64,000 nucleotides of DNA from Elusimicrobiota bacterium (GTDB lineage: Bacteria; Elusimicrobiota; Elusimicrobia; JACQPE01): assembly GCA_016180815.1 (NCBI GenBank), contig JACPAN010000002.1, forward strand, positions 62,001 through 126,000, written 5' to 3'. The notes beneath the pieces were generated by a model that did not search any database, had not been told where the DNA came from, and saw nothing but the letters and a program-made list of their open reading frames with translations. Each line of letters starts with the position of its first letter. The stretch's first letter is position 1. This document shows, piece by piece, positions 9,135 through 60,466 of this stretch. The translations under genes were made by a program, and so were the position numbers.

Positions 9135-11726
9135 TTACTTGTTTTCCGATGACAACAGGGCCGGGCGTTTCAAATCCCAGCAGCGCAGCCAGGGGTTGTC
9201 GCCTAAATTGCGGACGGTTTCATACCCGGCGCCGCAAATAAACCCGCCGTTAAACGCGAGCGCGTAGCCCGCGTCATAATTATCGTCTTCGCCGTTGTAG
9301 CCGAAAGAGCTGATCAAATTGCCGTCCGGGTGATAGCCCTGGACCCAAACATCCAGAGACTGCCCGGGGACGCGGACCTGACCGATGACGAAAATGCGCC
9401 CTTGTTCGTCGACGGCCACGTCGTTCCAGGAATTCTCTCCGTGCGTGGGCCCTTTTTCTTTGACGGCCCAAAGTTTAGCGCCATCCTGATCCAAGACGCT
9501 GAGCATGGCTGAGGCGCCGCCGCCTTCATCGGGGTGAATGCCCGCCGCAAAAATACGGCCCCGTTGATCCACAGCCACGGCTTCGCCCATGCCCTCGTCG
9601 CTTTTGCTCCACTTCACCGTCAGGTTGCGGTCGAGTTTCGTGATCCAGTATCCGGCGTCGCGCAATGTTTGGGTCGACCGGTACACCGTGGCCAGGACAT
9701 AGGCTTCGCCGTTGTTGGCGGCGATATCGTTAATCTCGCTCATTTTGACCGGCCCTCCAAAACGCGCGTCCATGGGCCAAAAAAAATCTTTTTTGATTTT
9801 TCCCGTTTCGGAATCCACAATCCAGAGAAGCGCTTGATCGAGCGAGGTGTCGATGTTGTCATCGGAGGTTTCATGGCAAGACGTTTCTTTGCCGGCGGCC
9901 AACAGATGACGGCCGAGGAAAGCAAGGGAGGTAATTTCAGTCGCGTTGGCGCAGGAGCCGGGTTCGCGTTGCCATAAGAGCCGTCCGTCCGGGGAAAATT
10001 TGGCGATCCAGGCCCGCAGTCCATCCCTGAGCTGCTTGCCCTGCGCGCCGGCGGCGTAAATATTTCCTTCATCATCCAGGGTGACGGCGTGAAACAGGCT
10101 TTCTTGTCCCGCCCGGATATTCTCGGTCCAGGACCATCCGGGATTTCCCTTGCCGTCGATTTTTTGAATCCAGGCTTTGCGTTTTCCTGATTTGCCGTGA
10201 TGATGGCCCGCAACCAGGAAGCCGCCGCCTTGAGCGGGGGCCATGGTTTCAATGATGCCCCTGTTAGAGGACGCCCAAGCGGCGTCAAAAGCCACCGGCC
10301 CTCTTTGATAAGGCGGTTTCCCCGGCGCCACCACGGGGATGGCCAGGATATCGTCTTGGCCGCTCGTCAGGGATTTGCCGGGGAAATGGGAGCAATAGGC
10401 GTTTTCAATATAGTCCTGCAATTCGCTTTTGTCCCAGCTTTTCCAGAGGGAAAGGATTTGTTTATGAAACGGTGAGATGGCCGAGGGCGAAGCTTTTTTC
10501 AAGAAAGCGGCCTGGACGCTGAACGCGCGGAATTCCCGTTCCACGGTGGAGATGGGATTATCCGGCCAATCATCCCAAGCGTGCCGCAGCTCATGGGTCA
10601 GAAAGGCGGCGACCTCGTCGTCAGCGGCTTCTTGCGGAGCCAGGAATTCCGTGCTCAACTCGATGCGGCGTTGATTGTTTTGATGCACGTACATGCCCTT
10701 GACCCCTTCTCCGAACAGATAAGAGAATTCGATGTTCAGCTTGGAACGTTTTTGGAAATCGGTGAGTTTAGTCAGTTCCTTGCGGGAAGCGATCAGGTCC
10801 AAAGCCCGTCTGATTTTTTCCCGGCCCACACGCTTGAGCGTTCCCGCGCTTTTTTCTTTAAGGCTGAGGGTTTTAAAGACGGAAATATAATCCTTCATCA
10901 CGGCGGCATCCGCGCGAATGATGCCGCGCAAGGGCTCGGGTGCTGACGCGTATTTTTCAAGCATCAACTTTACGATGGCGTCCATGGTGTCTTTGGCTTG
11001 CATGGCGATTTCCACATGAATCAGCGATGTCTGGCGGACGGGCTTCAAACGCGCCGCTTCTTTAGCCCAATTCATCATGGCCTCATTGTTGACATAGGGC
11101 CAGCGAGCCAGCGTCTGCCAGTCGTGATCGTCGGGGCTGCGGGCGTAGAGGCGCCCCGGCGCTTTGAGGTTTTGGAATATGCGCCCGGCGTCTGCGACCG
11201 GCGCTATGAGATTTCGATCCGGCTTTTTCCCGTAGGCGATGACGAACGTCGTGTGGTATTGAATCGTTCTGGCGGCTTTGGCCAGGCTTTCGTAATAGAC
11301 GGCCAATCGTTCGAGGTCTTTGTCGCTGACGAGAACGTCCTCGGCCGACGGCTCCCAATTGTCTTGAGGAGGCTGCATTCGTTGTTGGCAATGGTTTTCA
11401 ATGCGCCGCGGCGTCAAGCCTAAATCAGGCGGCACAAGCCCCGGCTGTTCTCGATGCCGCTGTTCTTGCTCGCCGGTTTCAGGCACGGCCAGACCGAGGG
11501 AGGGATCATCGGCCCCGCCGGATGCGAGGGTCGGGGTGTTGACCTGGTCGATATAGGCTTTTTCTTCTTGGGTGGCTTTCGCCATGCGGCGGTATTCCCG
11601 GTCGAGATTAGGCGCCGTGATGCCGGGCGCGGGGATGTCCGGGTCCACGACGAGGCGGATCAGGGACATGGCAGCCGCGGTCACGACGATCGCGGCCCCA
11701 AGAATGAAGAGGAAGGATTTTTTCAC
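9135..11726 (-). CDS. Exported HExxH metallopeptidase-like protein with C-terminal beta-propeller
   Basis: An 863-residue protein not assignable to a named family. Residues 1-27 form a signal peptide or anchor (KKSFLFILGAAIVVTAAAMS). A helical region carries FLTHELRHAWDDW near residue 379, a plausible HExxH zinc site. From about residue 490 to the end run repeats of the type GNIYAAG..., GRIFAAG..., GRIFVIGQ with Trp-rich ends, like delta-60/SBBP propeller blades. The start is GTG. Unlike the 1203-residue protein at 56855-60466 it lacks a sorting-like C-terminal domain. A peptidase role is inferred from the motif alone. Confidence 0.7.
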   Translation of the reverse strand: MKKSFLFILGAAIVVTAAAMSLIRLVVDPDIPAPGITAPNLDREYRRMAKATQEEKAYIDQVNTPTLASGGADDPSLGLAVPETGEQEQRHREQPGLVPPDLGLTPRRIENHCQQRMQPPQDNWEPSAEDVLVSDKDLERLAVYYESLAKAARTIQYHTTFVIAYGKKPDRNLIAPVADAGRIFQNLKAPGRLYARSPDDHDWQTLARWPYVNNEAMMNWAKEAARLKPVRQTSLIHVEIAMQAKDTMDAIVKLMLEKYASAPEPLRGIIRADAAVMKDYISVFKTLSLKEKSAGTLKRVGREKIRRALDLIASRKELTKLTDFQKRSKLNIEFSYLFGEGVKGMYVHQNNQRRIELSTEFLAPQEAADDEVAAFLTHELRHAWDDWPDNPISTVEREFRAFSVQAAFLKKASPSAISPFHKQILSLWKSWDKSELQDYIENAYCSHFPGKSLTSGQDDILAIPVVAPGKPPYQRGPVAFDAAWASSNRGIIETMAPAQGGGFLVAGHHHGKSGKRKAWIQKIDGKGNPGWSWTENIRAGQESLFHAVTLDDEGNIYAAGAQGKQLRDGLRAWIAKFSPDGRLLWQREPGSCANATEITSLAFLGRHLLAAGKETSCHETSDDNIDTSLDQALLWIVDSETGKIKKDFFWPMDARFGGPVKMSEINDIAANNGEAYVLATVYRSTQTLRDAGYWITKLDRNLTVKWSKSDEGMGEAVAVDQRGRIFAAGIHPDEGGGASAMLSVLDQDGAKLWAVKEKGPTHGENSWNDVAVDEQGRIFVIGQVRVPGQSLDVWVQGYHPDGNLISSFGYNGEDDNYDAGYALAFNGGFICGAGYETVRNLGDNPWLRCWDLKRPALLSSENK

Positions 11727-47164: not shown

Positions 47165-48295
47165 TTATTTACCAAGAAGTTTTGGAGAGCGTGTCGCTTG
47201 AGCCGCTGCAATAAAAACGAGATGCGGCCCCCAGGCCGCCAGAAGGGGATGAATCAGGCCGTGCCCGGCTAGGGTCTTGGACAGGTTTAAGACGAACCAA
47301 TAGGCCAATCCTAAAACGATCGTTATCCCGAATAAAACCAGTTTTCCCTTAAAAATTTTCCTAGGCAGGACGTTTAATACCGTAATCGCCAGAATGACCA
47401 TGATCAGAAACGAGCTGGGCCAGGCCCAGCGGGCATGATATTCGGTCAGAAGATTTCTGTGCGCCAAGCCGCGTTGCTGCATGATTTTCAGGTTTTCGGT
47501 CAGCTCCGGCACAGTCATCATATCCGGACTCCAGGCCCAGGGCAGCAGGTCGCCGGGCGTTTCATCGAGCTGCAAAATGCGCCTGGACGTGATGTTGGTG
47601 GTAACGGCGCCGGGCTGCGTGTCATCTATTTGTCCGGGGGCATAAGCGTGTTCCGCGACCTCTTCAAGCATCCACAGCAGGCGTTTACCGTCGAAGCGTC
47701 CCCGTTTGGCGAATACCTCGCGCACATGGCGCTGTCCATCCCATTCGTCCAGCCAGAAATCCCGGAAGCTTTCGTCCTTCGGGTCGAACGATGCGAAAGC
47801 GAAATAGCGCCCTTCCCGGCCTTTCGCGACAAAATTTTCGAGAGGCCCTGAGGGTTTGTTCTTTTTTTGAATCACCGTTTTTAAATAGTCCTTGGCTTGC
47901 CGGTAGAAAACCGGCGCCCTGGATTCAACGCCGCATAATCCGGCCAAGTTCAGCAGCAGAGCCGCGGCGATCAACGGCAGATAAATCCGGGCCGGCCTGA
48001 TCCCCAGGCCTTCCAAGGCGGTCAATTCTCCGGTGCGGTGCGCGTCGTCTAAAACCGTCAAGGAACTCCCCAAAAAGGCCAGCGGAGCGGCTTTCCAAAT
48101 CCAGAAGGGAAGCTGCCATCCGAAGTAAGCGCCGATGGCGCCGATCGTCGCCTTGTGATTCATAAAAACGTCGAGTTTTTCCAGGAATACGGAAAGAACG
48201 AAAAGAATCGTGAAAAAGCCGCACCATAGGGTGAATTGAAAGACCAACTCTTTCATCAGATGCCGGTCGTAAAGGAAACGATGCCGGTTGATCAT
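47165..48295 (-). CDS. lptG: LptF/LptG-family permease (LptG position)
   Basis: A 376-residue inner-membrane protein. Three N-terminal helices (from residue 13, 50 and 95) precede a periplasmic beta-jellyroll region (about residues 140-270), followed by three C-terminal helices, the LptF/LptG layout. These proteins form the transmembrane part of the LptB2FG ABC exporter that extracts lipopolysaccharide. The TGELTALEGLGI segment is the conserved coupling helix. Its start overlaps the upstream paralogue stop (ATGA). F versus G is assigned by order only. Confidence 0.88.
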   Translation of the reverse strand: MINRHRFLYDRHLMKELVFQFTLWCGFFTILFVLSVFLEKLDVFMNHKATIGAIGAYFGWQLPFWIWKAAPLAFLGSSLTVLDDAHRTGELTALEGLGIRPARIYLPLIAAALLLNLAGLCGVESRAPVFYRQAKDYLKTVIQKKNKPSGPLENFVAKGREGRYFAFASFDPKDESFRDFWLDEWDGQRHVREVFAKRGRFDGKRLLWMLEEVAEHAYAPGQIDDTQPGAVTTNITSRRILQLDETPGDLLPWAWSPDMMTVPELTENLKIMQQRGLAHRNLLTEYHARWAWPSSFLIMVILAITVLNVLPRKIFKGKLVLFGITIVLGLAYWFVLNLSKTLAGHGLIHPLLAAWGPHLVFIAAAQATRSPKLLGK

Positions 48296-49410
48296 GGCGC
48301 CAACAGCAGGGACAAGAGCCAGCTTAACGAGAGAAAAGCCGGGTTGGCCATCCAGGGCTCTTTAACGCTGGTGGCCAGAACAAGGAGAAGCCAATAAGCC
48401 CCCAGCATGGCCAAGGCCAGGCCGAAACCGAAGCCTTTGGAGCGCCGGCGTAATTTAACCGTAACCAAGCCGCAGGCCAAGGCCAGGGCCAGGGGAGAAA
48501 TAGCCAGCGCGTGCCTTGATTCAAGCTCCAAGCGATGCTGCAGGGAATCGCCGGCCGCCTTTTTAAGTTCGCGGCTGACCATCTCTCTGGGGGATAATTC
48601 GTGTTGTGCGGGAGGCAGCAAGGGGAGCGTGTTTTCATAAGTGGCAAAGGAGCAGGTGGTCAGGTTGCCGGGCTCAGTCAGGTCGGGATAATCCAATTTG
48701 CCTGAGAACACCCGCAGGAAAAGCCCCGGCTTTCCTTCGGCGTCTTCTTGAATCCGGTAAACCGCGCTTGAGCCGGTGACTTTATAGGGAAATTTTTGTT
48801 CCGCATTGGATGCGTTTTGATCCCGGCTCGAATAAATGACCACTTTGTTTAAACGGTTGCCGGTTACCTCTTCGGCGAAGATTTGAGTCCGGCCCAAATC
48901 AATCCAGGTTTGCGGCTCCACCCTGAAATTTTTGGCGATATCCCGGCCTTCATAGGCGAATCGTTTCAAATGCAGGCGGGCCAATGGTCCTGCGTGGTGG
49001 ATCAGGGGGAAAAGACAAGCGGATAGAACAGCGCCTAGAACAGCCAAGAGCGCCAGCAGGTGTTTGTGGACGGCCGCTCCCAGGCTCTCCAAGGCGATCA
49101 GCTCATTGTCTTCGTGAAGCCTGGCCATGGTCAGCGCAATGCCCAGGAGCAAGGCCATGGGGCAGATGAATCCGGCCACGGTCATCCAGTATTGGGCGTA
49201 GAGGTAGCCAAGCGAGCCCAGAAAAACCGAGAGGCTGCTGCCTGCGACCAACAGGGCTAATTCAAAAATTTTTGATGATTCGGCAAAAAAGAAAAAAAGG
49301 CTGAAAATACCGATTCCCAGGCAAAAGTTGCCCAGCCACTCTTTTAGGAACGCGTAGAAAAAGATTTTCAATTTCCAAATGATTTTATTGCATTTCCGGG
49401 TTGTTTCCAT
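48292..49410 (-). CDS. lptF: LptF/LptG-family permease (LptF position)
   Basis: A 372-residue paralogue of the next gene with the same layout: hydrophobic N-terminal helices, a coupling segment DNELIALESLGA, a periplasmic region (about residues 150-290, VEPQTWIDLGRTQIFAEEV) and C-terminal helices. It is the first gene of the pair and is divergent from sprA. The presence of both subunits indicates that the cell makes lipopolysaccharide or a similar outer-membrane glycolipid. lptB was not seen here. Confidence 0.87.
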   Translation of the reverse strand: METTRKCNKIIWKLKIFFYAFLKEWLGNFCLGIGIFSLFFFFAESSKIFELALLVAGSSLSVFLGSLGYLYAQYWMTVAGFICPMALLLGIALTMARLHEDNELIALESLGAAVHKHLLALLAVLGAVLSACLFPLIHHAGPLARLHLKRFAYEGRDIAKNFRVEPQTWIDLGRTQIFAEEVTGNRLNKVVIYSSRDQNASNAEQKFPYKVTGSSAVYRIQEDAEGKPGLFLRVFSGKLDYPDLTEPGNLTTCSFATYENTLPLLPPAQHELSPREMVSRELKKAAGDSLQHRLELESRHALAISPLALALACGLVTVKLRRRSKGFGFGLALAMLGAYWLLLVLATSVKEPWMANPAFLSLSWLLSLLLAP

Positions 49411-49528: not shown

Positions 49529-52500
49529 TTGTCTCGTAAGGTCCTTAAGGTATTTTTTAGGACCGCGCTGTTGGCGGTTTTGGGAATTTTTTCCGTCAAG
49601 GCGCTCGCTTCCCATCTGGAAGACCCCTGGCTGATGGAAGAGGTCGAGCGCATGTATTCCCCAGGCGCGAGTTTCGTCATCTTCCCCAGAAAATCCGGCG
49701 AACCCATTTTGCCCAGCTTGAAATACCCCATCGAGGAGGAAGTGATCGAAGAGGAAGCCGTGCCCTGGGAAGACTTCATTGCGCGCTTTAGGCCTTTGCG
49801 TCTCAGGCACCGTCTTTATCATGAGGCCAGGAAAGAAGTGGAATTTCAAGAGCGCGCGCTGACGGCCTTTGAAAACGAAGAGGTGGAAATCGCCAAGCGT
49901 TTGGCGATTTCCGTCCCGCTCGCCCTGCCTGCCGCAACCCCCAGGCCCAGGCCTCCCGAGCTTGAAATTCCGGCCTGGGAAGGGAAGGTTTCCATTGCCG
50001 GCCGCAAGCTGATCGCGCTCAATATCCAGAATAAGAAATTCACCAATGCGCCCCATCCCTTGAGGCCGCGCTCTCAACCCAAACCCACGTTCGATCTCAG
50101 GCAGGAACTGCAGTTAAGAATCAGCGGCAATGTGTCGGACCGGGTCATGGTCAACGTAGATTACGACGACACCAAGGAAAACAAAAGAGATATCTCCATC
50201 GTGTACAAGGGCGCGCCCGGGGAAACGGTCAAAGAGATTTCCTTCGGCGACATCACGCTGAATCTTCCCCAGACGCAGTTCACGTCCTATTCCAAGCAGC
50301 TCTTCGGCATCAAGGGCGAGTTTGATTTCAGGCGCGCGCGCCTGATGGTCGTGGGCAGCCAAACCAAGGGCCAATTCGCCATCAAGCGATTCTCCGGGCA
50401 ATATCAATTCGAGTCGGGGGACATCAAGGACACGGATTATATTCGCCGGACCTATTACAACCTGGCGTTTTCTCAAACCCATTTGCCGTTAAAAGCAGGC
50501 AGCGTCGTGGTTTTCCGCGACGACAGGAACCCGACGAACGACTCCAACGCGCAAGAGACGGGCGTCGAAGATTTTGCGGTGCCCTCATCGACATATTCGG
50601 GGAAAATGGATGTTTTGATCGCGGGGGTGGATTATGTCGTGGACCATCAAAACGGCATCTTGCGTTTTACCGGTTCCCAGGCTCCCAATGCGATCATCGC
50701 GGTCAATTACATCACGGCATCGGGTCAGCAGCTTTCATCGTTATCCGGCACCGGCAAGCCTAAGATTATCAAGACGGACAACGATCTTCCCATCGCGGAC
50801 GCGACCAATGAAACGGGTTACCGGCGCGAGGCGAAAACGTTTTATTCCTTCCGCCGCAATAAGATTTTAAGAGACGACGGCAAAGGCAGTTTTATCTTGA
50901 AGCTGCTGGAAAACGGCAGCAGAAAAGACGTTTCCGGCACTTTGGGGATCAAATATCCCGATCAAATCGCGGTGGACTTCGAGCAGGGCACGTTCCAACT
51001 GGCGGCCCCGATTCCGGACGCGGAGGTTTATTTGCCCACGCCGATTTCGAAATACCTCTTCGCTTTTGAAATCCGTTTCGTTTTGAAGACCTATATCCTG
51101 CAGCCCAACATGGTTTTGCAGTCGGAGAAAGTGTACCGGGACGGGCAATTGATGACCCGCGATCTGGACTATTTCATTGATTATGATTCGGGCTTTTTGA
51201 CGTTTCTGAGGCCAGAACTCATCAGGCCCGATAGCCAGATCGAAGTGACTTACGAAGTCGCTCCGTTTGGTTCGCGTTTGACCGAAACCTTGATCGGCGC
51301 CCGGGGCGAGCTGGACTTACTCAAGAACGTGCAGCTGGGCTCTTTCTCCATGAGCAAGCTCTCCATGGGCTCCTCGATCTTGCTCCAGCAGGCCGCCAAG
51401 CCGGCTACGATCCCGGACATCCGGTCGCTGCCGACGAGCTACTCCATTTACGAGGGCGATCTTCATATGGATTCCTTGAAGCTGCCCATGGTGCCGTTTA
51501 CCAGCAGTCTCCACGGTGAAATCGCGCAGAGCTTGCGCTCGCCGAACACCTTCAAGAAAGCGCTGATCGAATCCATGGAAGGGATCAAAATCGAAGACAA
51601 TGTGGTTTTGCAGCCTTTATTTTGGTTCCCCGCGGCCAATCCTCCGGGCAATACGCCGGCCAAGCTGGGGACTGTTTCTCTTTCGGCTGAAAGCGAGCGC
51701 ATCAAAGCCATCAACCCGGGCGCGGACGTCGGCGACAACGATACCCAGGAAGTGCTCCGTTTAAATTACGATTTTAGCGCCTCCAGCGCGGCCAGCGTGC
51801 AATTTTTGTTTTCTCCGATCGGCCTTGATTTTTCAAATAAAGAGTTTTTGGAGCTGGCCTTGATCGGGGATACGACTTCCAACGACGGCCCGGAAATTTC
51901 CTTTCATCTCGGCCGCGTTGACGAGGACGCGGACGGCGACGGCCGGCTCGACACCGAAGACGTCAACAGCGACGGAGGCTTGAACTTCGGCGAAGATATC
52001 GGTTGGACCTACGACAACCCGGATGCGACGACCGAAAAAATCGGCCCCCAAAACGGCCGCTTGGACAGCGAAGATTTGGATCGAAACGGCCGCTTGGACA
52101 GCGAAGACCCGTTGATCGGCGGGCGCTTCGGGCTGGTGGCCGGCTCCACTTCGAGCGTCGTTGATTTCGACACATGGCGAAGCACGGCCGTATCCTTGGG
52201 CGTCACGTCCTCTAATCAAAGCCAGTGGGTCAGCATCAAGGCCTTGAGGGTTACGCTCAAGCGCCGCCCCGGAGGCAAGACCATGGGCTCGGTGCGCATC
52301 GGCAGGATCGGGGTTGCGGGCAGCCGCTGGGAGCGCCCGGCGCTGGTTTCCTCGTCGGGAACGGTGCGGGTCGGCCCTATCAACAATGTGGATGATATCG
52401 GGTATCAACCCCTTTACTCAGCGGGCGGGGAGACCCAAACGGTTTTTGACGAGCTTTACGGCGGCAATCAGTCTGGGCCCGGCGGCTTGGCTGCGCAAAC

Positions 52501-54904
52501 GCAGCGGCGGCGACGCGAGCAGGCGTTGAGGATTTCGCTGCAAAATTTCTCACCCACCGGCGGATCGCCGGGATCGGTCAATACGCGGCTGTCCTTCGTG
52601 CGCCCCGTCAATCTTCAGAGCCATAAGGTTCTGGCGTTCTTTTTCAACGGTCCGGCAACCACGCTGCCGGCGGGCACCAGCTTCTTTTTCCAGTTCGGCT
52701 CAGCCGGCGACTACTATGAATACCGCGTTCCCCTTGGCCAGGGCAATGTGAACCGGCAATGGTATTTGTTCAAGATCCGGCTGGAGGATCGAAACAAGGA
52801 CGGCAATGTCGACGACGTTTTTCCTGAGAATCGTTCGGAGTTGGGCGTGGGCGTGAGCGTCACGGGAAACCCCAATTTGTCGAACGTCACGCAAATGGTG
52901 GCCGGCGTTATTTTGCCCGCCGGCGCTCCGGCGATCAACGACGAGGTCTGGCTCAACGATATTTTCATGCTCGAACCGCGGGATAAAAAAGGCGTCGCCA
53001 AGTATTTGTCCATGGATTTTAACCTGCCCCGCTGGATGACTTGGGGGTTCTCCTATAAATCTTACAACCAGGATTTTGAGAGTCCGGGTCAGGCCATTCT
53101 CAACCAAGGGTTGAGCCAGCGGACGGCCAATCTAAACTTCACGCGGCTCTCGTTCATGCCGTTGAGCGTTTCCGGCAGCCGCGAGGTGGTTTTAACGCCC
53201 AGCGTCATTCAAACGGGATCAAACTTGGTTTCCCAGCTTTCCGAGGGCCGGGTCGAAAAAGAGTCGGTCAGCGGCAGCGGCAGCCTTGATTTGCCGTTGT
53301 TGCCGCCCGTTTCCTGGGCCGCCTCCAAGAATCGGACCGACAACAAGAATATCCGAAGAATCGACGAGAACGAAACCCAGTCCGGGTCGCTGTCGTGGCC
53401 GGCTCCTCTGGGGCTTAAATTCATCCAATCGTGGTCCAACAGCGCTTCGCGGACATTGTCCAAGGTTTTCTTTCATAAGGACGACCGCCTGAAGGGTTCC
53501 GATGATTTGAGGGAGATCACGGACACGGTAGCGACGTCCATGTCCTTTGGTTTTTTCAACAATCGAGTGGGTTTGTCGCCCAATTATCGCTTGTCGACGT
53601 CGAACGAGCGGCGGGACGTTCTTAACGCGGACGACACGATCACCAAGCAGAATTACCCAAAATCGCGTTCGCAAAACGCGAGTGTGACCGCGACCTTGCG
53701 CCTATTCCCCTGGTTTGAGCCTACGGCCAGCTTCACGAGCACGATTCAAGAGAGCCATAGGGTCGAAAGCGCCTCCTTCACCCTGGCCGGAGTCCCGGGG
53801 CAGTTTGTTCGCGGGGATTTAAAAAGCATCAACCGCCAGTCCAGCCTTTCCATTTCGCAGAATTTCGATTTCGCGCGCATTGTTCCGACGTGGCGCTTGT
53901 TCAGGGCTTTCAATCATTACGTGAATTTTCAGACCACGGACGGCGACGCGTACGAAAACGTGATCCGCGGATTCAAGGCCGGGGACAAGCTTTGGGTCCG
54001 CAAGCCGTTGGAAGTTGAGAATCCGGGCGCGCGGCGCACGACGCTCACCTTGCGGGATTCGATCAGCGTCAATTCGCGCTGGACGCCGTTTATCGCGATT
54101 TGGCCGCAAAATCCCCTGGCGACCCTATCCATCGGCAATAATTACGCCCGATCCCTGGACCGCTCGGAAACTACCGGCACCGAACGCAAGAGTTTGAGTT
54201 TGAGCTTTCCGGATTTGACCGTCTCCCTGTCTCAAATCGAGCGCATCATCAGGACGCACGGCTGGATGTCTTCAACGTCTTTGACTACGCGTTTCAGCAA
54301 GCGCCTGCAGTCAAACGTGGGTATCGACAAAAGAGTCGACATCAACACCGGCGGGGATTTTCATTTCGTGGCTTGGCAGCGTTACGATTTTACGACCAGC
54401 TATTCTGAGACTCAGAGCCGGGCCTTTAACCTTTTGACGCAAATCAAGACCAGCGACGCCCTGGCGCGAACTTTGTCCCTGCAAGTGGGTTTTAACTGGA
54501 GCGTTTGGCGATTGACGAATAAATTCGGCTATGCCGACGCCAAGGCCGTGGATTCCACGGACCGCCTGACCCAGGATCAGAAAACCATCAATCCTTCCGT
54601 CGGGGTTCGCGGCGATTTCAGCCTGCCCGCGGGTTTGGGCCTTCCGTTTACTTCCAAGCGGTTGACGTTCACCAATCGCGTTATTTTAACCTCGGATTTA
54701 AGCCTGGACCGGAAATCTTCGCTCCTGAACGTGGAGCAGACGAATACGGAAACCTGGAACTGGAACTTAAACGGCGATTTTGAAATCGGAAAAAATTTAC
54801 GCGCCGGACTGGGGTCCGGGGTCAGCATGTTCAAAAATAAAGTGCTCAAAGACCAAGATTTCTATACTTACTCGCTCAATGGGCAAGTGGTCTTCCAGTT
54901 TTAG
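49529..54904 (+). CDS. sprA: SprA-like giant outer-membrane protein of a type IX-like secretion system
   Basis: A 1791-residue protein with a signal peptide (to ALAS) and then nearly continuous beta-strand sequence to a terminal Phe. SprA-type segments are visible: SKQLFGIKGEFDF with a following GQFAIKRFSGQ, VYRDGQLMTRDLDYFIDYDSG, DYYEYRVPLG, DEVWLNDIFMLEP, and AKYLSMDFNLPRWMTWG. SprA (Sov) is the T9SS translocon, a 36-strand barrel. This one is shorter than the roughly 2400-residue Bacteroidota proteins. Residues about 797-865 hold Asp-rich DxDxDG calcium-loop-like repeats. The start is TTG with AGGAGG eight bases upstream. A PorV-like partner and a candidate cargo lie downstream. Confidence 0.85.
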   Translation: MSRKVLKVFFRTALLAVLGIFSVKALASHLEDPWLMEEVERMYSPGASFVIFPRKSGEPILPSLKYPIEEEVIEEEAVPWEDFIARFRPLRLRHRLYHEARKEVEFQERALTAFENEEVEIAKRLAISVPLALPAATPRPRPPELEIPAWEGKVSIAGRKLIALNIQNKKFTNAPHPLRPRSQPKPTFDLRQELQLRISGNVSDRVMVNVDYDDTKENKRDISIVYKGAPGETVKEISFGDITLNLPQTQFTSYSKQLFGIKGEFDFRRARLMVVGSQTKGQFAIKRFSGQYQFESGDIKDTDYIRRTYYNLAFSQTHLPLKAGSVVVFRDDRNPTNDSNAQETGVEDFAVPSSTYSGKMDVLIAGVDYVVDHQNGILRFTGSQAPNAIIAVNYITASGQQLSSLSGTGKPKIIKTDNDLPIADATNETGYRREAKTFYSFRRNKILRDDGKGSFILKLLENGSRKDVSGTLGIKYPDQIAVDFEQGTFQLAAPIPDAEVYLPTPISKYLFAFEIRFVLKTYILQPNMVLQSEKVYRDGQLMTRDLDYFIDYDSGFLTFLRPELIRPDSQIEVTYEVAPFGSRLTETLIGARGELDLLKNVQLGSFSMSKLSMGSSILLQQAAKPATIPDIRSLPTSYSIYEGDLHMDSLKLPMVPFTSSLHGEIAQSLRSPNTFKKALIESMEGIKIEDNVVLQPLFWFPAANPPGNTPAKLGTVSLSAESERIKAINPGADVGDNDTQEVLRLNYDFSASSAASVQFLFSPIGLDFSNKEFLELALIGDTTSNDGPEISFHLGRVDEDADGDGRLDTEDVNSDGGLNFGEDIGWTYDNPDATTEKIGPQNGRLDSEDLDRNGRLDSEDPLIGGRFGLVAGSTSSVVDFDTWRSTAVSLGVTSSNQSQWVSIKALRVTLKRRPGGKTMGSVRIGRIGVAGSRWERPALVSSSGTVRVGPINNVDDIGYQPLYSAGGETQTVFDELYGGNQSGPGGLAAQTQRRRREQALRISLQNFSPTGGSPGSVNTRLSFVRPVNLQSHKVLAFFFNGPATTLPAGTSFFFQFGSAGDYYEYRVPLGQGNVNRQWYLFKIRLEDRNKDGNVDDVFPENRSELGVGVSVTGNPNLSNVTQMVAGVILPAGAPAINDEVWLNDIFMLEPRDKKGVAKYLSMDFNLPRWMTWGFSYKSYNQDFESPGQAILNQGLSQRTANLNFTRLSFMPLSVSGSREVVLTPSVIQTGSNLVSQLSEGRVEKESVSGSGSLDLPLLPPVSWAASKNRTDNKNIRRIDENETQSGSLSWPAPLGLKFIQSWSNSASRTLSKVFFHKDDRLKGSDDLREITDTVATSMSFGFFNNRVGLSPNYRLSTSNERRDVLNADDTITKQNYPKSRSQNASVTATLRLFPWFEPTASFTSTIQESHRVESASFTLAGVPGQFVRGDLKSINRQSSLSISQNFDFARIVPTWRLFRAFNHYVNFQTTDGDAYENVIRGFKAGDKLWVRKPLEVENPGARRTTLTLRDSISVNSRWTPFIAIWPQNPLATLSIGNNYARSLDRSETTGTERKSLSLSFPDLTVSLSQIERIIRTHGWMSSTSLTTRFSKRLQSNVGIDKRVDINTGGDFHFVAWQRYDFTTSYSETQSRAFNLLTQIKTSDALARTLSLQVGFNWSVWRLTNKFGYADAKAVDSTDRLTQDQKTINPSVGVRGDFSLPAGLGLPFTSKRLTFTNRVILTSDLSLDRKSSLLNVEQTNTETWNWNLNGDFEIGKNLRAGLGSGVSMFKNKVLKDQDFYTYSLNGQVVFQF

Positions 54905-55559
54905 GGTCGCGCTTGATTTCTTTTTTCCTTCTTTTTGCGCCGGCTGCGAGGTTTATTTAGGGTTTCGCGCCGATCCCCGCCGCCTGTGTCCAAGTTGCGA
55001 GGTCAAGCTGGAGGCGGCGCGTCAAGAGCATGTCAGCCGGCGCTCGGGCGGGGGGTCGCTCGACGCGTTCTTTAGCTTCGGACCTTATGGCAGCGAACCG
55101 CTGACGACCCTCATTCACAAAATCAAATACCAGCAGAAGGATTGGATTTTTGAGGCGCTGGAGCCGGCTTTGCGCCGTCATTTATGCGGGTTTAATCTTG
55201 AGTCCATGGTTGATGCCGTGGCGCCCGTGCCGCTTCATTCTTGGCGCTTAAGGGAAAGGGGATTCAATCAAGCCGAGATTATCGGTCAAGCGGTCGCCGA
55301 ACATATCGGCAAGCCGCTGGAGAAGGGCTTGATGCGCCGCAGCCGAAGGACAAAACCCCAGATGAGCTTGACGGATAAAAGCCTGCGGCGGGCGAATGTG
55401 CGCGGCGCTTTCGAGGCTTTGCAGCCGGGTTCGGCGCAGGGAAAAAGTTTTCTTCTTGTGGATGATGTGTCGACGACAGGCGCCACGCTTCATGAAGCGG
55501 CCGCGGCTCTGCGCCAAGCCGGGGCGCGCAAAGTGATCGGCTTCGCGTTAGCCGCTTAG
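54879..55559 (+). CDS. comF: ComF-family phosphoribosyltransferase-like protein
   Basis: A 226-residue ComF-type protein. The N-terminal zinc-ribbon-like part has FCAGC...CPSC. The PRTase half has VPLHSWRLRERGFNQAEII, RRTKPQMSLTDKSLRRANVRG in conserved form, and the PRPP-like loop LLVDDVSTTGATL. ComF proteins are linked to DNA uptake or processing in competent bacteria, with unclear biochemistry. ATG 54879 overlaps the end of sprA by 26 bases, so the gene is probably cotranscribed with it. Confidence 0.92.
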   Translation: MGKWSSSFRVALDFFFPSFCAGCEVYLGFRADPRRLCPSCEVKLEAARQEHVSRRSGGGSLDAFFSFGPYGSEPLTTLIHKIKYQQKDWIFEALEPALRRHLCGFNLESMVDAVAPVPLHSWRLRERGFNQAEIIGQAVAEHIGKPLEKGLMRRSRRTKPQMSLTDKSLRRANVRGAFEALQPGSAQGKSFLLVDDVSTTGATLHEAAAALRQAGARKVIGFALAA

Positions 55560-55711
55560 CTCTACTGTGAGACATAACTCATTTACTACCGTCACACCGG
55601 CGAAAGCCGGTGTCCAGGCCCGAAATTCTCGATTTAATTGCAGATTCAAGCACCTGGATTCCAGCTTTCGCCGGAATGACTGCCCTTTTTAAGCCATGTC
55701 TTACAGTAGAG
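55560..55711. repeat. Palindromic repeat element (MITE/REP-like)
   Basis: The outer arms 55560-55576 and 55695-55711 pair with two mismatches (CTCTACTGTGAGACAT against its near reverse complement). Inner arms 55591-55618 and 55653-55680 carry the GTCA...CCGGCGAAAGCCGG...CCAGG pattern, typical of dispersed palindromic repeats in many genomes. It has no coding capacity. It lies between comF and the convergent PorV-like gene. Confidence 0.75.
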
Positions 55712-55736
55712 TTAGGTTGATGGCCGTTTAATCGGT

Positions 55737-56858
55737 TTAATACCGATTTTCCGGGTCTTCCGGCAGGACGTCTTTGGGAGCCGCTTGGGGTTTGGGTTCG
55801 GCTTGGCGTTTAATATCCGGGTGTTCGCTGTGCTTGTGCTCGTGCTCCTTGTGTGTTTCGCTGGGGTTGTCTTCATCGACGTGCGGGTCGCGCCGGCGCT
55901 TGTGGTGATGGAATTTATAGGAAAGGGAAACGCGATGAGTGTTGCCCAAATCGCCCAAAGGATTGTAGGCGTAATCCACGCCTAAATTGAAGAACTCGAA
56001 GCCCAAACCCACGCTGTAATTGGCATTGGAGCCCAATTCCGCGCTCAATCCCCTTGTGTTGTAGCCGGCGCGGGGGGAAATAATGGTTTCATGCCCGGCG
56101 TTGAGATGAAGCTCGATGCCGCCGAAGAAGTCGGGGTCGCCTTTATTGGGAATAGTGGCCGCGAGGCTGATCCATGTTCCGTCGTAGTTGGGCACCTCTT
56201 TGGCGCCGGCGATGCGCAATTGAGTGGGCAGGGGGCTGCTTTCTTTGACGAATTTCAGCCCGTTGCCGAAATTTTGATAGGCAATCCCGAGCGAGCCGTC
56301 GTGGGAAATGTAGAGCAAACCTATGTCCCCGGCCACCGTTGATTTGGTGGCGCTTAATTTCGAGGATAAAAATTGCGCGGCGACGCCGATTCTTAAATGG
56401 CTCTGATGGATGACGGTGCCGTAAGCGATGCGGCCGAGCGTTTCTTTGGGCGCGAAGCTGCTGCCTGTCTTCGTCCCGGTGTTGTCGATTTCTTCGAGGG
56501 TTCCGTAGGAGAGGTATTGCACGCCGAATCCGAGGCCGCCCGAACCCGCGGGGATGACGCCGGCCACGGAATCATAAAAAATAGGGTCAATGAGCGGGCC
56601 GTGCAAAAGGTCGATGGACGTATGGCGGCCGGCGGAAACAGCGGCCGGGTTATAGTAGAAAGTGCTGGCGCGGTAATCGGGAAGCGCCCCGTAAGCTTCG
56701 CCCAAGCCGTAGGCCCGGGCATTGCCTCCCATCAGCAGGAGATTGCCGGTGGAGCGTCCCCTGTCGGCTGCGGACAGGGGGAAACAGAGATAGGCCAGCA
56801 TGGCCAGGGCCAGGGTGATCGGCATCCACCCGCCGTGCGGGTACCCGGACTTGGTCAT
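55737..56858 (-). CDS. porV: PorV/PorQ-family outer-membrane protein with His-rich tail
   Basis: A 373-residue protein with a signal peptide (to SAA). The start NLLLMGGNARAYGLGEAYGALPDYRASTFYYNPA (spread over residues 39-72) is the PorV/PorQ hallmark of a FadL-like barrel with Gly-rich opening and YNPA. Repeated beta strands end in HRVSLSYKF near residue 318. A 55-residue tail rich in His, Glu and Pro follows (HHHKRRRDPHVDED onwards). In T9SS, PorV binds SprA and cargo C-terminal domains. Its start overlaps the cargo gene's stop by 4 bases (ATGA), so the two are coupled. Confidence 0.85.
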   Translation of the reverse strand: MTKSGYPHGGWMPITLALAMLAYLCFPLSAADRGRSTGNLLLMGGNARAYGLGEAYGALPDYRASTFYYNPAAVSAGRHTSIDLLHGPLIDPIFYDSVAGVIPAGSGGLGFGVQYLSYGTLEEIDNTGTKTGSSFAPKETLGRIAYGTVIHQSHLRIGVAAQFLSSKLSATKSTVAGDIGLLYISHDGSLGIAYQNFGNGLKFVKESSPLPTQLRIAGAKEVPNYDGTWISLAATIPNKGDPDFFGGIELHLNAGHETIISPRAGYNTRGLSAELGSNANYSVGLGFEFFNLGVDYAYNPLGDLGNTHRVSLSYKFHHHKRRRDPHVDEDNPSETHKEHEHKHSEHPDIKRQAEPKPQAAPKDVLPEDPENRY

Positions 56859-59800
56859 CGCTCCAGAACCAGCCTTCCCTGCTTGGCCTCGCCTTCAGGG
56901 TTCGTGATGCGCCAGAGATAGACGCCGGAAGCGACGGGATGCCCGGCCGTGTTGATGCCGTTCCACAAGAGCTTGCCGCCCGTGCCTTCGATGGTTTTAT
57001 CCTCCACCAGTTCGCCGAAAATCGTGTAAATGCGCAGCGTAGCATTCGTGGTCACGCCTTCGAAGGTGAGTTTGGTGGCGTCGAATTTGTCGCCTGAGCC
57101 GATTCTCCAGGGGGTGGGGTAAACCTTGATCGTGTTTAAGGCCGATGCTGCGGGCGAACCGCCGGCCGCATAAACGCTGAAGTGCTCGACGCCGATGGAA
57201 ATCGTATTGCTCGTGGTGTCGATGGTGCCTGCGCCCAGCGATTCCCAGCGTTGCGTGGTCTCATTGAGCCTGTAAACGACCAGGCTTTGTTCTTCAAGCT
57301 CGGGGCTGGAGCCGTCGACGATCCCGTCTTGATTGACGTCTTTGTACGGGATGATGATGGTCACGTTCGACGAGAAATTTTCCGTTCTGGGGCCTCCCGA
57401 CGGTCCGTAGAAGACGAATTCACGCATGCTGTTGGTGAATAAATTTTGTCCTGCGCCCAAATTGCTGTTGGCGTTGGTGATGGCCGTGGTGCTGGCGATC
57501 AAATTAAAGAGGAGGGGGGTGGTCGAAACCGCGATCGAGCCGCTGGTCAATCCTCCGGGGTAGGTGACGCCCGATGGAATCAACGCGCGCGTGTAATTGT
57601 CCGAGGAAGCCAGCACATAGCTTTGCGTATTGGTGATGGCTACGGTGGCCACGGAAATCAAATAAGCGGCGGGAGGATTGCCGGTGTTAGCCAAGGTCGA
57701 AGGTCCGCCCAAGGTGGGGCAAGGCAGGCTGTCGCCGTTGAAGGACAAGATTTTAAAGGAATAGGGGTTATTGGGCAGAAGACCGGAAAGGGCTTTCGTG
57801 GTATCCGTCAAATTGGCGGAGAGGGCCACGATGGTTGAAACGCTGCCCATGAAATCAGTGGAGGTTGCGGCCTGAATCACGTAGCGGGTTCCCGAAGGAT
57901 TGCCGTTGGCGCCCCAGCTTAAGGTGAGGGAATTGTAAGAAACATTGCTGGCCGCCAAAGCAACCGGGCCGGTGGAAATCGTATAAACCGTGACCACCGA
58001 GGAGGTCGAGCCGCCGGAAGAGTTAAACGCGGCTACTTGACGCGAATAAGCCGTATTGATGGAAAGACCCAACTCAACCCAAAATGTGGTATTGGCGTCA
58101 AGGTTGATGATGCCTCCGGAGGATTGCACGATGCGGAAGCCTTCCTCATCGCTTAAATCGCTCCAACTCCAGGTGATCGAAGAAATCCCGTTGGCGGCGC
58201 CGGCCAATGAGCTCGGCGTGCTTGGCGCGGACGCCGGGGTGGTGACTGAAAATCGGGCGTAGCGTTGTTGGTTAGGCTTAGCCGTCATCTTCGTGAAATC
58301 GCCGCCGGCATCGAGCTTGGAGCTGCCCATGACCAAGCTTCTGACCGTAGTGCCGTTGGGATTGGGATTCCAGGCCGTGGCTTGTCCGTTGGAAGTGTAG
58401 AGTTCGGCTAAGCGGCCTCTGACTTGCCCGCCGACACTGGTGAAGCTCCCGCCGGCAAAAATTGTGGAACTGCTGATTGCTAAAGCGTTCACTGTGTCGC
58501 TGGCGCTAGGATTCCAAGTTGTGACCACAGAACCTGTGGATCCTTCGATAGCAGCGGCCAAGCGGTTTCTAGATACGGTTCCGCCTTCGGCTGTGGTAAA
58601 TGCGCCGCCGGCATAAATAATGCCGTTGGCATAAGCCAAAGCGTTGACCGCGCCGTTCATATTGGGATTCCATTGATTGACGTATCCCGTTGATCCTGTT
58701 TGTATGGCGGCCAAGCGGACAATGGCCATGGATCCTGCGCCGGAACCGTTGACGGTTGTGAAATCGCCGCCTGCGTAAACAAGCGGTTCTCTCACGACCA
58801 GGGCATTGACATCACTCCACATATTTGGATTCCAGGATGTCACAAAACCCGTGCTTCCCTCTTGAAGCGCGGCCAGACGGTTCCTAATATGATTCGCTCC
58901 GCCGATGCTGCCTGCGCCGTTGAATAAGCCGCCGACATAAACGAGGTTATTGCTGACCGCGATGGTATTGACCGTGCTCGTGGGGCTGGAATTGAAAATC
59001 GTGGCATAACCCGTGCTGTTTTCCTGGATGGCGGCCAAACGAGCCTGGCCCATGCCCGCGATATGCAGGAACGTGCCGCCGGCGTAAATGACCCCGTTGC
59101 CTACGGCCAAAGCGTTGACTTGGGCGCCGGGAGTGCTGGCGTTGGGATCCCAGGTCGTGAGATCGCCCGTCGTGGCGTCAATAGCCGCTAGCAGGTTTCT
59201 GATTTTTCCGCCCACGCTGCTGAGTTGGCCTCCTATATAGATTTTAGAGCCGCCGACAGCCAGGACATCGGCTTCGCCGCCGCCGGCGACATTCCAGACA
59301 GTGTCAACGTATCCGGTGGTGTTTTCCCTAATCGCGGCCAACCTCGATACGGGCAGACTCCCGTTGTTGGCGTTTTCAAAAATTCCTCCGGCGTAAATCA
59401 TGGAATTTGAATAGGCCAGGCTGTGGACGCGGTCGCTCATATCCGGATCCCACAGGGTGACATAGCCGGTTGATCCGTCCACAATGGCGGCTAAGCGATC
59501 GCGCAAGGGCCAGGCGCCGTTGAGCGTCGTAAAATCACCGCCGGCATAAACGATGTTGTTGGCGATTACCAGGGCGCGCACCACGTCATTGGCATTTGGG
59601 TCCCATGCGTGGACGTATCCCGTCGTGTTTTCCAGGATCAAGGCCAAGGAATTTCGCGGCAAGTTATCCATGGTGCCGAAGTAACCGCCGGCATAAACGC
59701 CGTTGGTTGAAATCGCCAGCGCGTTGACGGTGTTATCCGCATTGGGATTCCAGGATGTTGCGTTGCTTGAATTTAAATTGGGGAATAAAGCCGCCAAACG

Positions 59801-60466
59801 ATTGCGCGTTGCGCCGCCGATGGTGGTGAAATCGCCGCCTGCGTAAACAAGGCCGTTTGAGCCGATGGCCAAGGCGAAGACAGTGCCATTGGGATTGGGA
59901 TTCCAAGCCGTGACATAACCCGTGCTGTTTTCTTGAACGGCGGCCAGGGCGTTTCTGAGCAAGCCTCCGGCCGTAGTGAATAGTCCTCCGATATAAACGA
60001 TTCCCGTTGTGCTGACGACAATAGCGTTGACGTCGCTGTCGAGCTCCGGTTTCCATGTCGTGTCCAGAGTCCCGTCGGATTCAATATGAGCCAGGTATTT
60101 ATAACTTGAGTTGTTGTCGATGGCGGTGAAGTCGCCGCCGACATACCATCCGCCCGAACCGTCGGCGGTTGCGGCTAAGACATTCCCGTTGATTTTGGGG
60201 AATGTCGAATCCGAGGAGCCTGAGGCCGCGCTGACGGGAACGCCGCCGCCGGTATAAGGACCCACATAATCGAAACTCCCGCCGATATAAATCGTATTGC
60301 CCGAACGAACAATGGCGAGAACCGAGCCGTTAGTGATCAAATTCGTGTCCGCTGTGATGACGTCGGATAAGGCATGATGCGCCGATAAAGCGATGAAGGC
60401 GTTTAATAAGAAAAAAGTGGCCGCCTTGCGGCCTGCCGTTCTCTCTCTCCAGTATCCCTTAGACAT
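56855..60466 (-). CDS. Exported delta-60-repeat protein with FN3 domains and C-terminal sorting-like domain
   Basis: A 1203-residue protein. A signal peptide (to LSD) is followed by 14 repeats of about 50 residues (to about residue 740) of the form VYAGGDFTTIGG...RLAAI...STGYVTAWNPN...VNAL, giving delta-60-type propeller blades. Two fibronectin III-like domains follow (about 745-905), then a linker region. A C-terminal domain (about 1108-1203) has YPTPWRIG, LRIYTIFGELV, LLWNGINTAGHPVASGVYLWRI, the FlgD-like T9SS sorting-domain type. It is the likely cargo of the SprA-PorV machine. It precedes porV with ATGA overlap. Confidence 0.85.
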   Translation of the reverse strand: MSKGYWRERTAGRKAATFFLLNAFIALSAHHALSDVITADTNLITNGSVLAIVRSGNTIYIGGSFDYVGPYTGGGVPVSAASGSSDSTFPKINGNVLAATADGSGGWYVGGDFTAIDNNSSYKYLAHIESDGTLDTTWKPELDSDVNAIVVSTTGIVYIGGLFTTAGGLLRNALAAVQENSTGYVTAWNPNPNGTVFALAIGSNGLVYAGGDFTTIGGATRNRLAALFPNLNSSNATSWNPNADNTVNALAISTNGVYAGGYFGTMDNLPRNSLALILENTTGYVHAWDPNANDVVRALVIANNIVYAGGDFTTLNGAWPLRDRLAAIVDGSTGYVTLWDPDMSDRVHSLAYSNSMIYAGGIFENANNGSLPVSRLAAIRENTTGYVDTVWNVAGGGEADVLAVGGSKIYIGGQLSSVGGKIRNLLAAIDATTGDLTTWDPNASTPGAQVNALAVGNGVIYAGGTFLHIAGMGQARLAAIQENSTGYATIFNSSPTSTVNTIAVSNNLVYVGGLFNGAGSIGGANHIRNRLAALQEGSTGFVTSWNPNMWSDVNALVVREPLVYAGGDFTTVNGSGAGSMAIVRLAAIQTGSTGYVNQWNPNMNGAVNALAYANGIIYAGGAFTTAEGGTVSRNRLAAAIEGSTGSVVTTWNPSASDTVNALAISSSTIFAGGSFTSVGGQVRGRLAELYTSNGQATAWNPNPNGTTVRSLVMGSSKLDAGGDFTKMTAKPNQQRYARFSVTTPASAPSTPSSLAGAANGISSITWSWSDLSDEEGFRIVQSSGGIINLDANTTFWVELGLSINTAYSRQVAAFNSSGGSTSSVVTVYTISTGPVALAASNVSYNSLTLSWGANGNPSGTRYVIQAATSTDFMGSVSTIVALSANLTDTTKALSGLLPNNPYSFKILSFNGDSLPCPTLGGPSTLANTGNPPAAYLISVATVAITNTQSYVLASSDNYTRALIPSGVTYPGGLTSGSIAVSTTPLLFNLIASTTAITNANSNLGAGQNLFTNSMREFVFYGPSGGPRTENFSSNVTIIIPYKDVNQDGIVDGSSPELEEQSLVVYRLNETTQRWESLGAGTIDTTSNTISIGVEHFSVYAAGGSPAASALNTIKVYPTPWRIGSGDKFDATKLTFEGVTTNATLRIYTIFGELVEDKTIEGTGGKLLWNGINTAGHPVASGVYLWRITNPEGEAKQGRLVLER

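What the first reader, a model, noticed from the sequence alone, without database searches (positions are those of the whole stretch)
49529..60466. Type IX secretion-like island: SprA translocon, PorV partner and a sorting-domain cargo
SprA-type segments (SKQLFGIKGEFDF, DYYEYRVPL, VWLNDIFML, AKYLSMDFNLP) mark a 1791-residue translocon candidate. A PorV-family barrel is translationally coupled to a secreted 14-repeat delta-60 protein whose last about 95 residues form a FlgD-like sorting domain. T9SS is best known in Bacteroidota. A shorter SprA paired with a propeller cargo and a comF gene, with no gldKLMN visible, would be an unusual variant. Nearby LptFG shows an outer membrane is present.
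Basis: partly seen in the sequence, partly recalled or inferred. Interest (0 to 1): 0.85.

Follow-up and report, generated by a model that had tools for sequence, protein, structure and literature searches.

The report
Type 9 secretion translocon in Elusimicrobiota
[quoted passage not shown] nearly all of the phylum has it, and many of its predicted secreted proteins are encoded right next to a private carrier barrel, while the usual motor was not detected.

Summary
The 1791-aa ORF is a genuine SprA homologue: a profile of its relatives matches only solved SprA in the PDB (E 2e-38), and AlphaFold models of both overlapping halves match SprA first, far ahead of anything else. The partner is PorV-family (120 bits, cut-off 90). 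The cargo is a 14-repeat propeller with a C-terminal FlgD/type-A-like sorting domain (CTD), sub-threshold singly but shared by over 20 own-genome proteins. It is not an odd island: a SprA homologue is in 129 of 150 sampled Elusimicrobiota, usually between lptFG and comF. The unexpected part is genome-wide: about 23 PorV-family genes, with 18 of 25 CTD matches followed on the same strand, median gap 139 nt, by one (0.1 expected by chance); six relatives show the same (73 of 150 listed). In a paralogous set, CTD and PorV travel as a matched cassette while passengers are swapped. In Bacteroidota, type-A cargo shares one PorV; dedicated carriers are known for type-B cargo (PorP/SprF). GldL/M/N and the C25 sortase PorU were not detected here, without positive control. 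Best reading: a T9SS-like SprA pathway with dedicated PorV carriers, outside the FCB group, energised by something unidentified. New variant of a known kind; function untested.

The parts
49529..54904 (+). SprA-family outer-membrane translocon, 1791 aa, no cysteine, invariant C-terminal Phe
   Evidence: TIGR04189 148.8 bits; profile A1 vs PDB only 6h3i/6h3j SprA E 2e-38, collinear; AlphaFold halves pLDDT 85-87 with SprA as the top four Foldseek hits, E down to 1e-43 and 4e-38; F1791 invariant in 72 aligned sequences
55737..56858 (-). PorV/PorQ-family barrel, presumed dedicated carrier of the adjacent cargo; about 56-aa charged C-terminal tail
   Evidence: NF033709 120.2 bits over the 90 cut-off; PorQ 89.3, PorV 39.9; profile A7 of 15 own-genome partners vs PDB: PorV chain of the SprA complex 6h3i_F E 7.7e-23; tail
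56855..60466 (-). Secreted cargo, 1203 aa: signal-like N-terminus, 14 delta-60-like propeller repeats, fn3, C-terminal sorting domain
   Evidence: Rax2, DUF5122, fn3, FlgD_ig, CHU_C; PorZ and TIGR04183 tail; 14 motifs
56858..57151 (-). C-terminal FlgD/type-A-like sorting domain of the cargo (last ~98 residues)
   Evidence: 83.7 bits to the own-genome CTD profile A3, of which it is one of 14 rows (C2:118858-119151 = window 56858-57151); independent FlgD_ig match ends 15 aa before the stop
54780..55559 (+). comF-like phosphoribosyltransferase downstream of sprA (mechanical ORF; the true start is probably after 54904); conserved neighbour, no evident role in secretion
   Evidence: TIGR00201 102.8 bits; immediately downstream of sprA in 25 of 32 relatives
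48292..49410 (-). LptF-like LPS-export permease, divergent from sprA
   Evidence: PF03739 116 bits; lptF/G within three genes upstream of sprA in 26 of 32 relatives
47165..48295 (-). LptG-like LPS-export permease
   Evidence: PF03739 188 bits, TIGR04408 132 bits

Best explanation
The locus encodes the core of a type-9-like protein export pathway of Elusimicrobiota. Cargo crosses the inner membrane by Sec, then threads through the large SprA barrel. Its C-terminal Ig-like domain is caught on the outer face by a PorV-family barrel docked at SprA, and the cargo-PorV complex leaves together and stays in the outer membrane. Unlike the single general PorV that serves all type-A cargo in Bacteroidota, many cargo genes here carry their own PorV-family gene immediately downstream, so carrier and cargo would be made in step and the carrier would double as surface anchor, as SprF does for SprB. 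Shown here: homology and fold of SprA, homology of PorV and CTD, number of CTD proteins, gene pairing, cassette inheritance of CTD and PorV, phylum-wide occurrence. Inferred: that secretion happens, docking, one-to-one specificity, surface anchoring. Unknown: what energises it.
For: SprA identity by profile and fold. PorV family tied to the PorV chain of the SprA complex. The CTD profile finds 28 places in the own genome; 14 of the 20 FlgD_ig hits end 12-19 aa before a stop, and its best PDB match is the CTD of P. gingivalis PorZ, with PorU's CTD also among the hits. Pairing: own 18 of 25 CTD matches, G045 21/26, G083 10/14, G037 15/29, G012 25/75, G005 1/5, G003 1/1 listed; summed chance expectation about 1.1 for 91 of 175. 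Natural swap: C7_3736 and C15_211694 passengers are 88% identical up to the CTD edge, then CTD 49% and PorV 47%; C7_3736 against C35_12156 and C23_31137 passengers about 31-33% but CTD 82%, PorV 89-90%. SprA gene in 129/150 phylum genomes, and PorV-family genes near sprA in 18 of 32 loci.
Against: No secretion data. The SprA and the window's CTD scores are under the curated cut-offs. Among 11 divergent own-genome pairs CTD and PorV distances do not correlate (Mantel r = -0.02); the overall r = 0.88 comes from one recent paralogous set, so specificity between divergent pairs is not shown. Neighbouring sequences can be inherited together without interacting. Some CTD proteins have no adjacent PorV (C11, C17, C7:21580, C8:212211), and in G012 only a third do. 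No GldL/M/N found, although the Bacteroidota system needs them.
Confidence: 0.8

Rival explanations
1. An ordinary T9SS whose GldKLMN motor and ring are present but too divergent for the Bacteroidota profiles; only the carrier arrangement differs. (Compatible with most of the best explanation; it differs on what energises export.)
For: SprA and CTDs here also score below curated cut-offs, so the other components may be just as divergent; the Gld searches had no positive control. One weak GldL match in G033, 24.7 bits. GldK was not searched.
Against: SprA is found in 129/150 genomes with a Bacteroidota profile, whereas GldM and GldN give 0/150 and GldL one weak hit under the same procedure. No recurrent extra gene family that could be a motor is evident beside sprA in the compared neighbourhoods. 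The own-genome PorV partners show no paired cysteines like the SprF tail that binds GldK (motif from PMC12635249).
Confidence: 0.4
2. The window's own pair is an attachment-complex pair like PorZ-PorQ rather than a cargo with its carrier: a propeller protein with a retained CTD sitting on a PorQ-like barrel near sprA and helping cargo attach to LPS.
For: Cargo tail scores best with PorZ (42.9 bits) and the partner scores PorQ 89.3 over PorV 39.9; PorZ delivers A-LPS to the PorU sortase (PMC8545088 abstract; that PorZ has propellers is general knowledge); lptFG is adjacent.
Against: In 10 relatives the CTD protein near PorV and sprA is an M6 metalloprotease with intact HExxH, not a propeller. 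14 of 15 PorV-family partners in this genome match the PorQ model, so that score does not single this pair out. PorU, which PorZ serves, was not detected.
Confidence: 0.15
3. The SprA-like barrel does another job, for instance LPS or lipid placement with LptFG, and the CTD-PorV pairs are unrelated to it.
For: lptF/G lies next to sprA in 26 of 32 relatives; recognisable LptD in only 9 of 150 genomes.
Against: LptD-profile matches lie in ORFs of about 530-800 aa in those genomes, so LptD is probably present but divergent. The fold match is specific to SprA; LptD and TonB-dependent receptors come far behind. PorV-family and CTD genes are found near sprA.
Confidence: 0.07
4. The C-terminal domains are generic Ig-like domains and the gene pairs a chance or annotation effect.
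For: The CTD profile also matches flagellar FlgD at similar strength.
Against: C-terminal placement within 12-19 aa of the stop, 18 pairs against 0.11 expected, repeated in relatives, and the passenger/CTD breakpoint.
Confidence: 0.03

Closest known systems
Type 9 secretion system of Bacteroidota (SprA/Sov, PorV, type-A CTD)
   Same: SprA barrel by profile and fold; PorV-family partner; Sec-exported cargo ending in an Ig-like CTD
   Different: SprA of about 1800 residues instead of 2400; no GldL/M/N profile hit, no C25 sortase in this genome; many PorV-family genes instead of one general PorV; outside the FCB group. PMC11285876 (2024) states that T9SS genes are absent from phyla outside FCB
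Type-B CTD cargo with dedicated PorP/SprF carriers (SprB-SprF; PMC12618676, PMC9143113, PMC12635249)
   Same: Cargo gene immediately followed by the gene of its own FadL-like carrier barrel; presumed stoichiometric carrier that anchors the cargo
   Different: Here the carrier is PorV/PorQ family and the CTD FlgD/type-A-like, not PorP/SprF and type B; the own-genome carriers show no paired cysteines like the SprF tail that binds GldK
PorU-PorV-PorQ-PorZ attachment complex of P. gingivalis
   Same: Propeller plus CTD protein beside a PorQ-like barrel; the CTD profile matches the PorZ and PorU CTDs best among T9SS structures
   Different: No PorU; in other Elusimicrobiota an M6 metalloprotease takes the CTD slot near sprA

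Membership tests
SprA/Sov translocon family | Sequence homology over the protein and NCBIfam equivalog cut-off | tested here: inconclusive
   Homology clear, cut-off not reached: TIGR04189 148.8 bits against 200; phylum profile against PDB hits only SprA, E 2e-38, collinear
SprA/Sov translocon family | Large outer-membrane barrel fold of SprA | tested here: met
   Two overlapping halves modelled at pLDDT 85-87; top four PDB matches are all SprA, E 1e-43 and 4e-38, next best 1e-5. Closure of the full 36-strand barrel was not modelled (length limit)
PorV/PorQ family | NF033709 over its cut-off | tested here: met
   120.2 against 90; family profile to 6h3i_F PorV E 7.7e-23
T9SS type-A CTD | TIGR04183 or Pfam cut-off met | tested here: not met
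   20.6 against 23, FlgD_ig 18.4 and CHU_C 17 against 27 for the window cargo; 14 own-genome places reach the FlgD_ig cut-off
T9SS type-A CTD | Ig-like domain at the extreme C-terminus of many Sec-exported proteins | tested here: met
   14 proteins with the domain ending 12-19 aa before the stop, 28 profile places; signal-like N-termini in many complete ORFs
Canonical T9SS | GldL/GldM proton-driven motor | tested here: inconclusive
   TIGR03517 0/150, TIGR03513 one weak hit in another genome and none in this one; no positive control genome available
Canonical T9SS | GldK/GldN ring | tested here: inconclusive
   TIGR03523 GldN 0/150, no positive control; GldK not searched
Canonical T9SS | PorU C25 sortase | tested here: not met
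   PF01364 in 1/150 genomes (G006, E 1e-31, which shows that the search works), none in this genome
Canonical T9SS | One general PorV for all type-A cargo | tested here: not met
   About 23 PorV-family genes, 18 of them directly behind a CTD gene
Canonical T9SS | CTD-dependent export through SprA | not testable with these tools
   Needs genetics and proteomics
Canonical T9SS | PorX/PorY/SigP regulation, SprE/PorW, PorD, SprT | not tested

The most novel reading that the evidence does not exclude
Elusimicrobiota run a motor-less form of type 9 export: because each carrier is consumed with its cargo and stays as its anchor, no GldLM-driven ejection and recycling of a general PorV is needed. This would be an old, simpler form of the pathway outside the FCB group, onto which Bacteroidota later added the motor, the general PorV and the sortase.
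Probability: 0.2. Interest if true: 0.9.

Novelty: new variant of a known kind. Interest (0 to 1): 0.78.

Why it matters
The T9SS is described as restricted to the Bacteroidota/FCB group and as dependent on the GldLM motor. A near-universal SprA in another phylum, with dozens of CTD proteins many of which sit beside their own PorV-family gene, gives a large natural set of presumed cognate carrier-CTD pairs for working out recognition rules, makes the question of what the motor is for directly testable, and predicts the surface proteome, including giant proteins, of a little-studied phylum.

Tried and rejected
(1) A CTD-PorV fusion in one 7398-aa ORF (C28) looked like proof of contact; the junction holds a signal peptide and an A/G-rich tract where a paralogue has stops, so a frameshift or assembly error is likelier, and I do not use it as evidence; in the pair count it is one of the 18. 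(2) Tree mirroring of pairs: significant overall (r 0.88) but gone after removing close paralogues (r -0.02), so not claimed as co-evolution. (3) SprA as LPS translocon replacing LptD: weak LptD-like ORFs exist in the phylum. (4) Pfam SprA_N alone is too weak to detect the gene. (5) Twin cysteines as in the SprF tail: not seen in the own-genome PorV partners. (6) The scan of named genomes returned only Elusimicrobia relatives because it reaches close relatives only, so distribution beyond the phylum was not examined. (7) phmmer of the window PorV alone against the PDB found nothing; the 15-sequence profile did.

Full report
SOURCE. The window is G000:C2:62001-126000 of a 2.85 Mb, 99.5% complete genome. 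Its SprA has 63-69% identical relatives in contigs titled 'Elusimicrobia bacterium', from groundwater MAGs, so the organism is a member of Elusimicrobiota, a phylum not counted in the FCB group.

IDENTITY OF THE THREE PROTEINS. TIGR04189 (SprA) matches the 1791-aa ORF at E 1.1e-43 in three stretches but under its curated cut-off. A profile of 32 Elusimicrobiota homologues searched against all PDB sequences returned two distinct sequences, both F. johnsoniae SprA, E about 2e-38; the matching stretches are collinear from about position 150 to 1170 of the profile. AlphaFold models of residues 145-1200 and 602-1791, each with 72 aligned sequences, reached mean pLDDT 85.2 and 86.9. In both cases the top four PDB folds are SprA (best 1.2e-43 and 4.1e-38), the next hits about 1e-5. 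The protein ends in a Phe that is invariant in all 72 sequences, usual for barrels assembled by BAM (general knowledge). The partner is PorV/PorQ family above cut-off. The cargo ends in a domain that is weak by single-model scores but belongs to a clear family: FlgD_ig hits 20 places in the genome, 14 of them ending 12-19 residues before a stop codon; a profile of those 14 finds 28 places, and its best PDB matches are the CTD of PorZ, FlgD, and the CTD of PorU.

NOT AN ISLAND. TIGR04189 finds a match in 129 of 150 Elusimicrobiota genomes, in intact cases in ORFs of about 1680-2120 aa; the genomes without a match are in family f10, many of them small genomes of one genus (g24). In 32 relatives lptF/G lies within three genes upstream in 26, comF directly downstream in 25, and a PorV-family gene within the fetched stretch in 18. 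In 10 relatives the CTD protein near PorV and sprA is an M6 metalloprotease with an intact HExxH.

THE PAIRS. NF033709 finds about 23 PorV-family genes in this genome. Laid against the CTD matches, 18 of 25 CTDs are followed on the same strand by a PorV-family match, median gap 139 nt, 0.11 expected by chance. Six genomes from six other families show 73 of 150 listed CTDs paired, about 1.0 expected; the tool cut the list for those genomes at the weaker matches, so these totals are of listed matches only. The window pair is one of the 18. Two further own-genome CTD genes (C8:28797, C8:212211) have a PorV-family gene upstream instead.

CASSETTE INHERITANCE. Six own-genome pairs form a recent set. 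Two of them (C7_3736, C15_211694) have passengers 88% identical in the 100 residues before the CTD edge, after which the CTD falls to 49% and PorV to 47%. C7_3736 against C35_12156 and C23_31137 shows the reverse: passengers 31-33%, CTD 82%, PorV 89-90%. So CTD and PorV are exchanged as a unit against the passenger. This is what cognate recognition predicts, though linkage alone could also give it. Across divergent pairs no correlation was measurable.

WHAT IS MISSING. GldM and GldN profiles: 0 of 150; GldL: one weak match elsewhere. The C25 sortase: 1 of 150 and not here. The tool had no positive-control genome for the Gld families, so these are non-detections, not proven absences; the SprA profile worked well under the same procedure. 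The own-genome PorV partners show no paired cysteines like the SprF tail that ties it to GldK (PMC12635249).

COMPARISON. In Bacteroidota type-A CTDs all use one PorV, and type-B CTDs often have a dedicated PorP/SprF carrier encoded directly downstream (PMC12618676, PMC9143113, PMC12635249). Here type-A-like CTDs and PorV-family barrels follow the type-B gene plan. Papers hold T9SS to be limited to Bacteroidota or the FCB group (PMC4793230, PMC11285876, PMC12421860, PMC11205867). No paper in the held library joins Elusimicrobi- with SprA and type IX secretion. 'Elusimicrobi' with 'T9SS' gave three papers: the two opened do not report such a system in the passages found, and the third, a hot-spring CAZyme survey, was not opened. 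bioRxiv and most subscription papers were not searchable, so a prior report cannot be ruled out.

VERDICT. A real SprA-based, T9SS-like export pathway, widespread in Elusimicrobiota, with dedicated PorV-family carriers and no recognised motor or sortase. It works like a T9SS with good probability; it is not filed as a canonical T9SS because defining parts were not met or not settled.

Noticed in passing
G000 C20:23828-24124 (8046-aa ORF) and C28:53220-53483 (7398-aa ORF); G037:C6:90203, G012:C3:141245, G045:C10:32111: Giant ORFs with T9SS-like CTD matches: 7,400-8,000 aa in this genome and 10,805, 17,343 and 18,319 aa in relatives.
   Followed up: no
L170 (G000:C28) near 53484-53640: A giant CTD ORF reads through into its PorV gene without a stop; an internal signal peptide and an A/G-rich junction suggest a frameshift or assembly error rather than a true fusion.
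   Followed up: partly
L039, L042-L045, L047, L051, L052, L055-L057: M6-type metalloproteases with HExxH and a C-terminal sorting domain sit near porV and sprA in relatives; a possible stand-in for the missing PorU sortase.
   Followed up: partly
L039, L044, L045, L057: A TPR-containing, lipoprotein-like gene (family F16) lies directly upstream of porV near sprA, reminiscent of SprE/PorW or PorE.
   Followed up: partly
G000 C9, C34, C24, C15 PorV partners: Several PorV-family partners carry long C-terminal tails, some TPR-like or coiled-coil-like, others charged; the window PorV has a 56-aa charged tail.
   Followed up: partly
window 9135-11726 (-): An 863-aa SBBP/delta-60-type propeller protein without a recognised sorting domain.
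   Followed up: no
Elusimicrobiota genomes at large: The Pfam LptD profile detects only 9 of 150 genomes although LptFG is common; the LptD of this phylum seems very divergent.
   Followed up: no
G033:C31:149120-149470 (L027, L050): Single weak GldL-profile match (24.7 bits) in a 407-aa ORF; not examined further.
   Followed up: no
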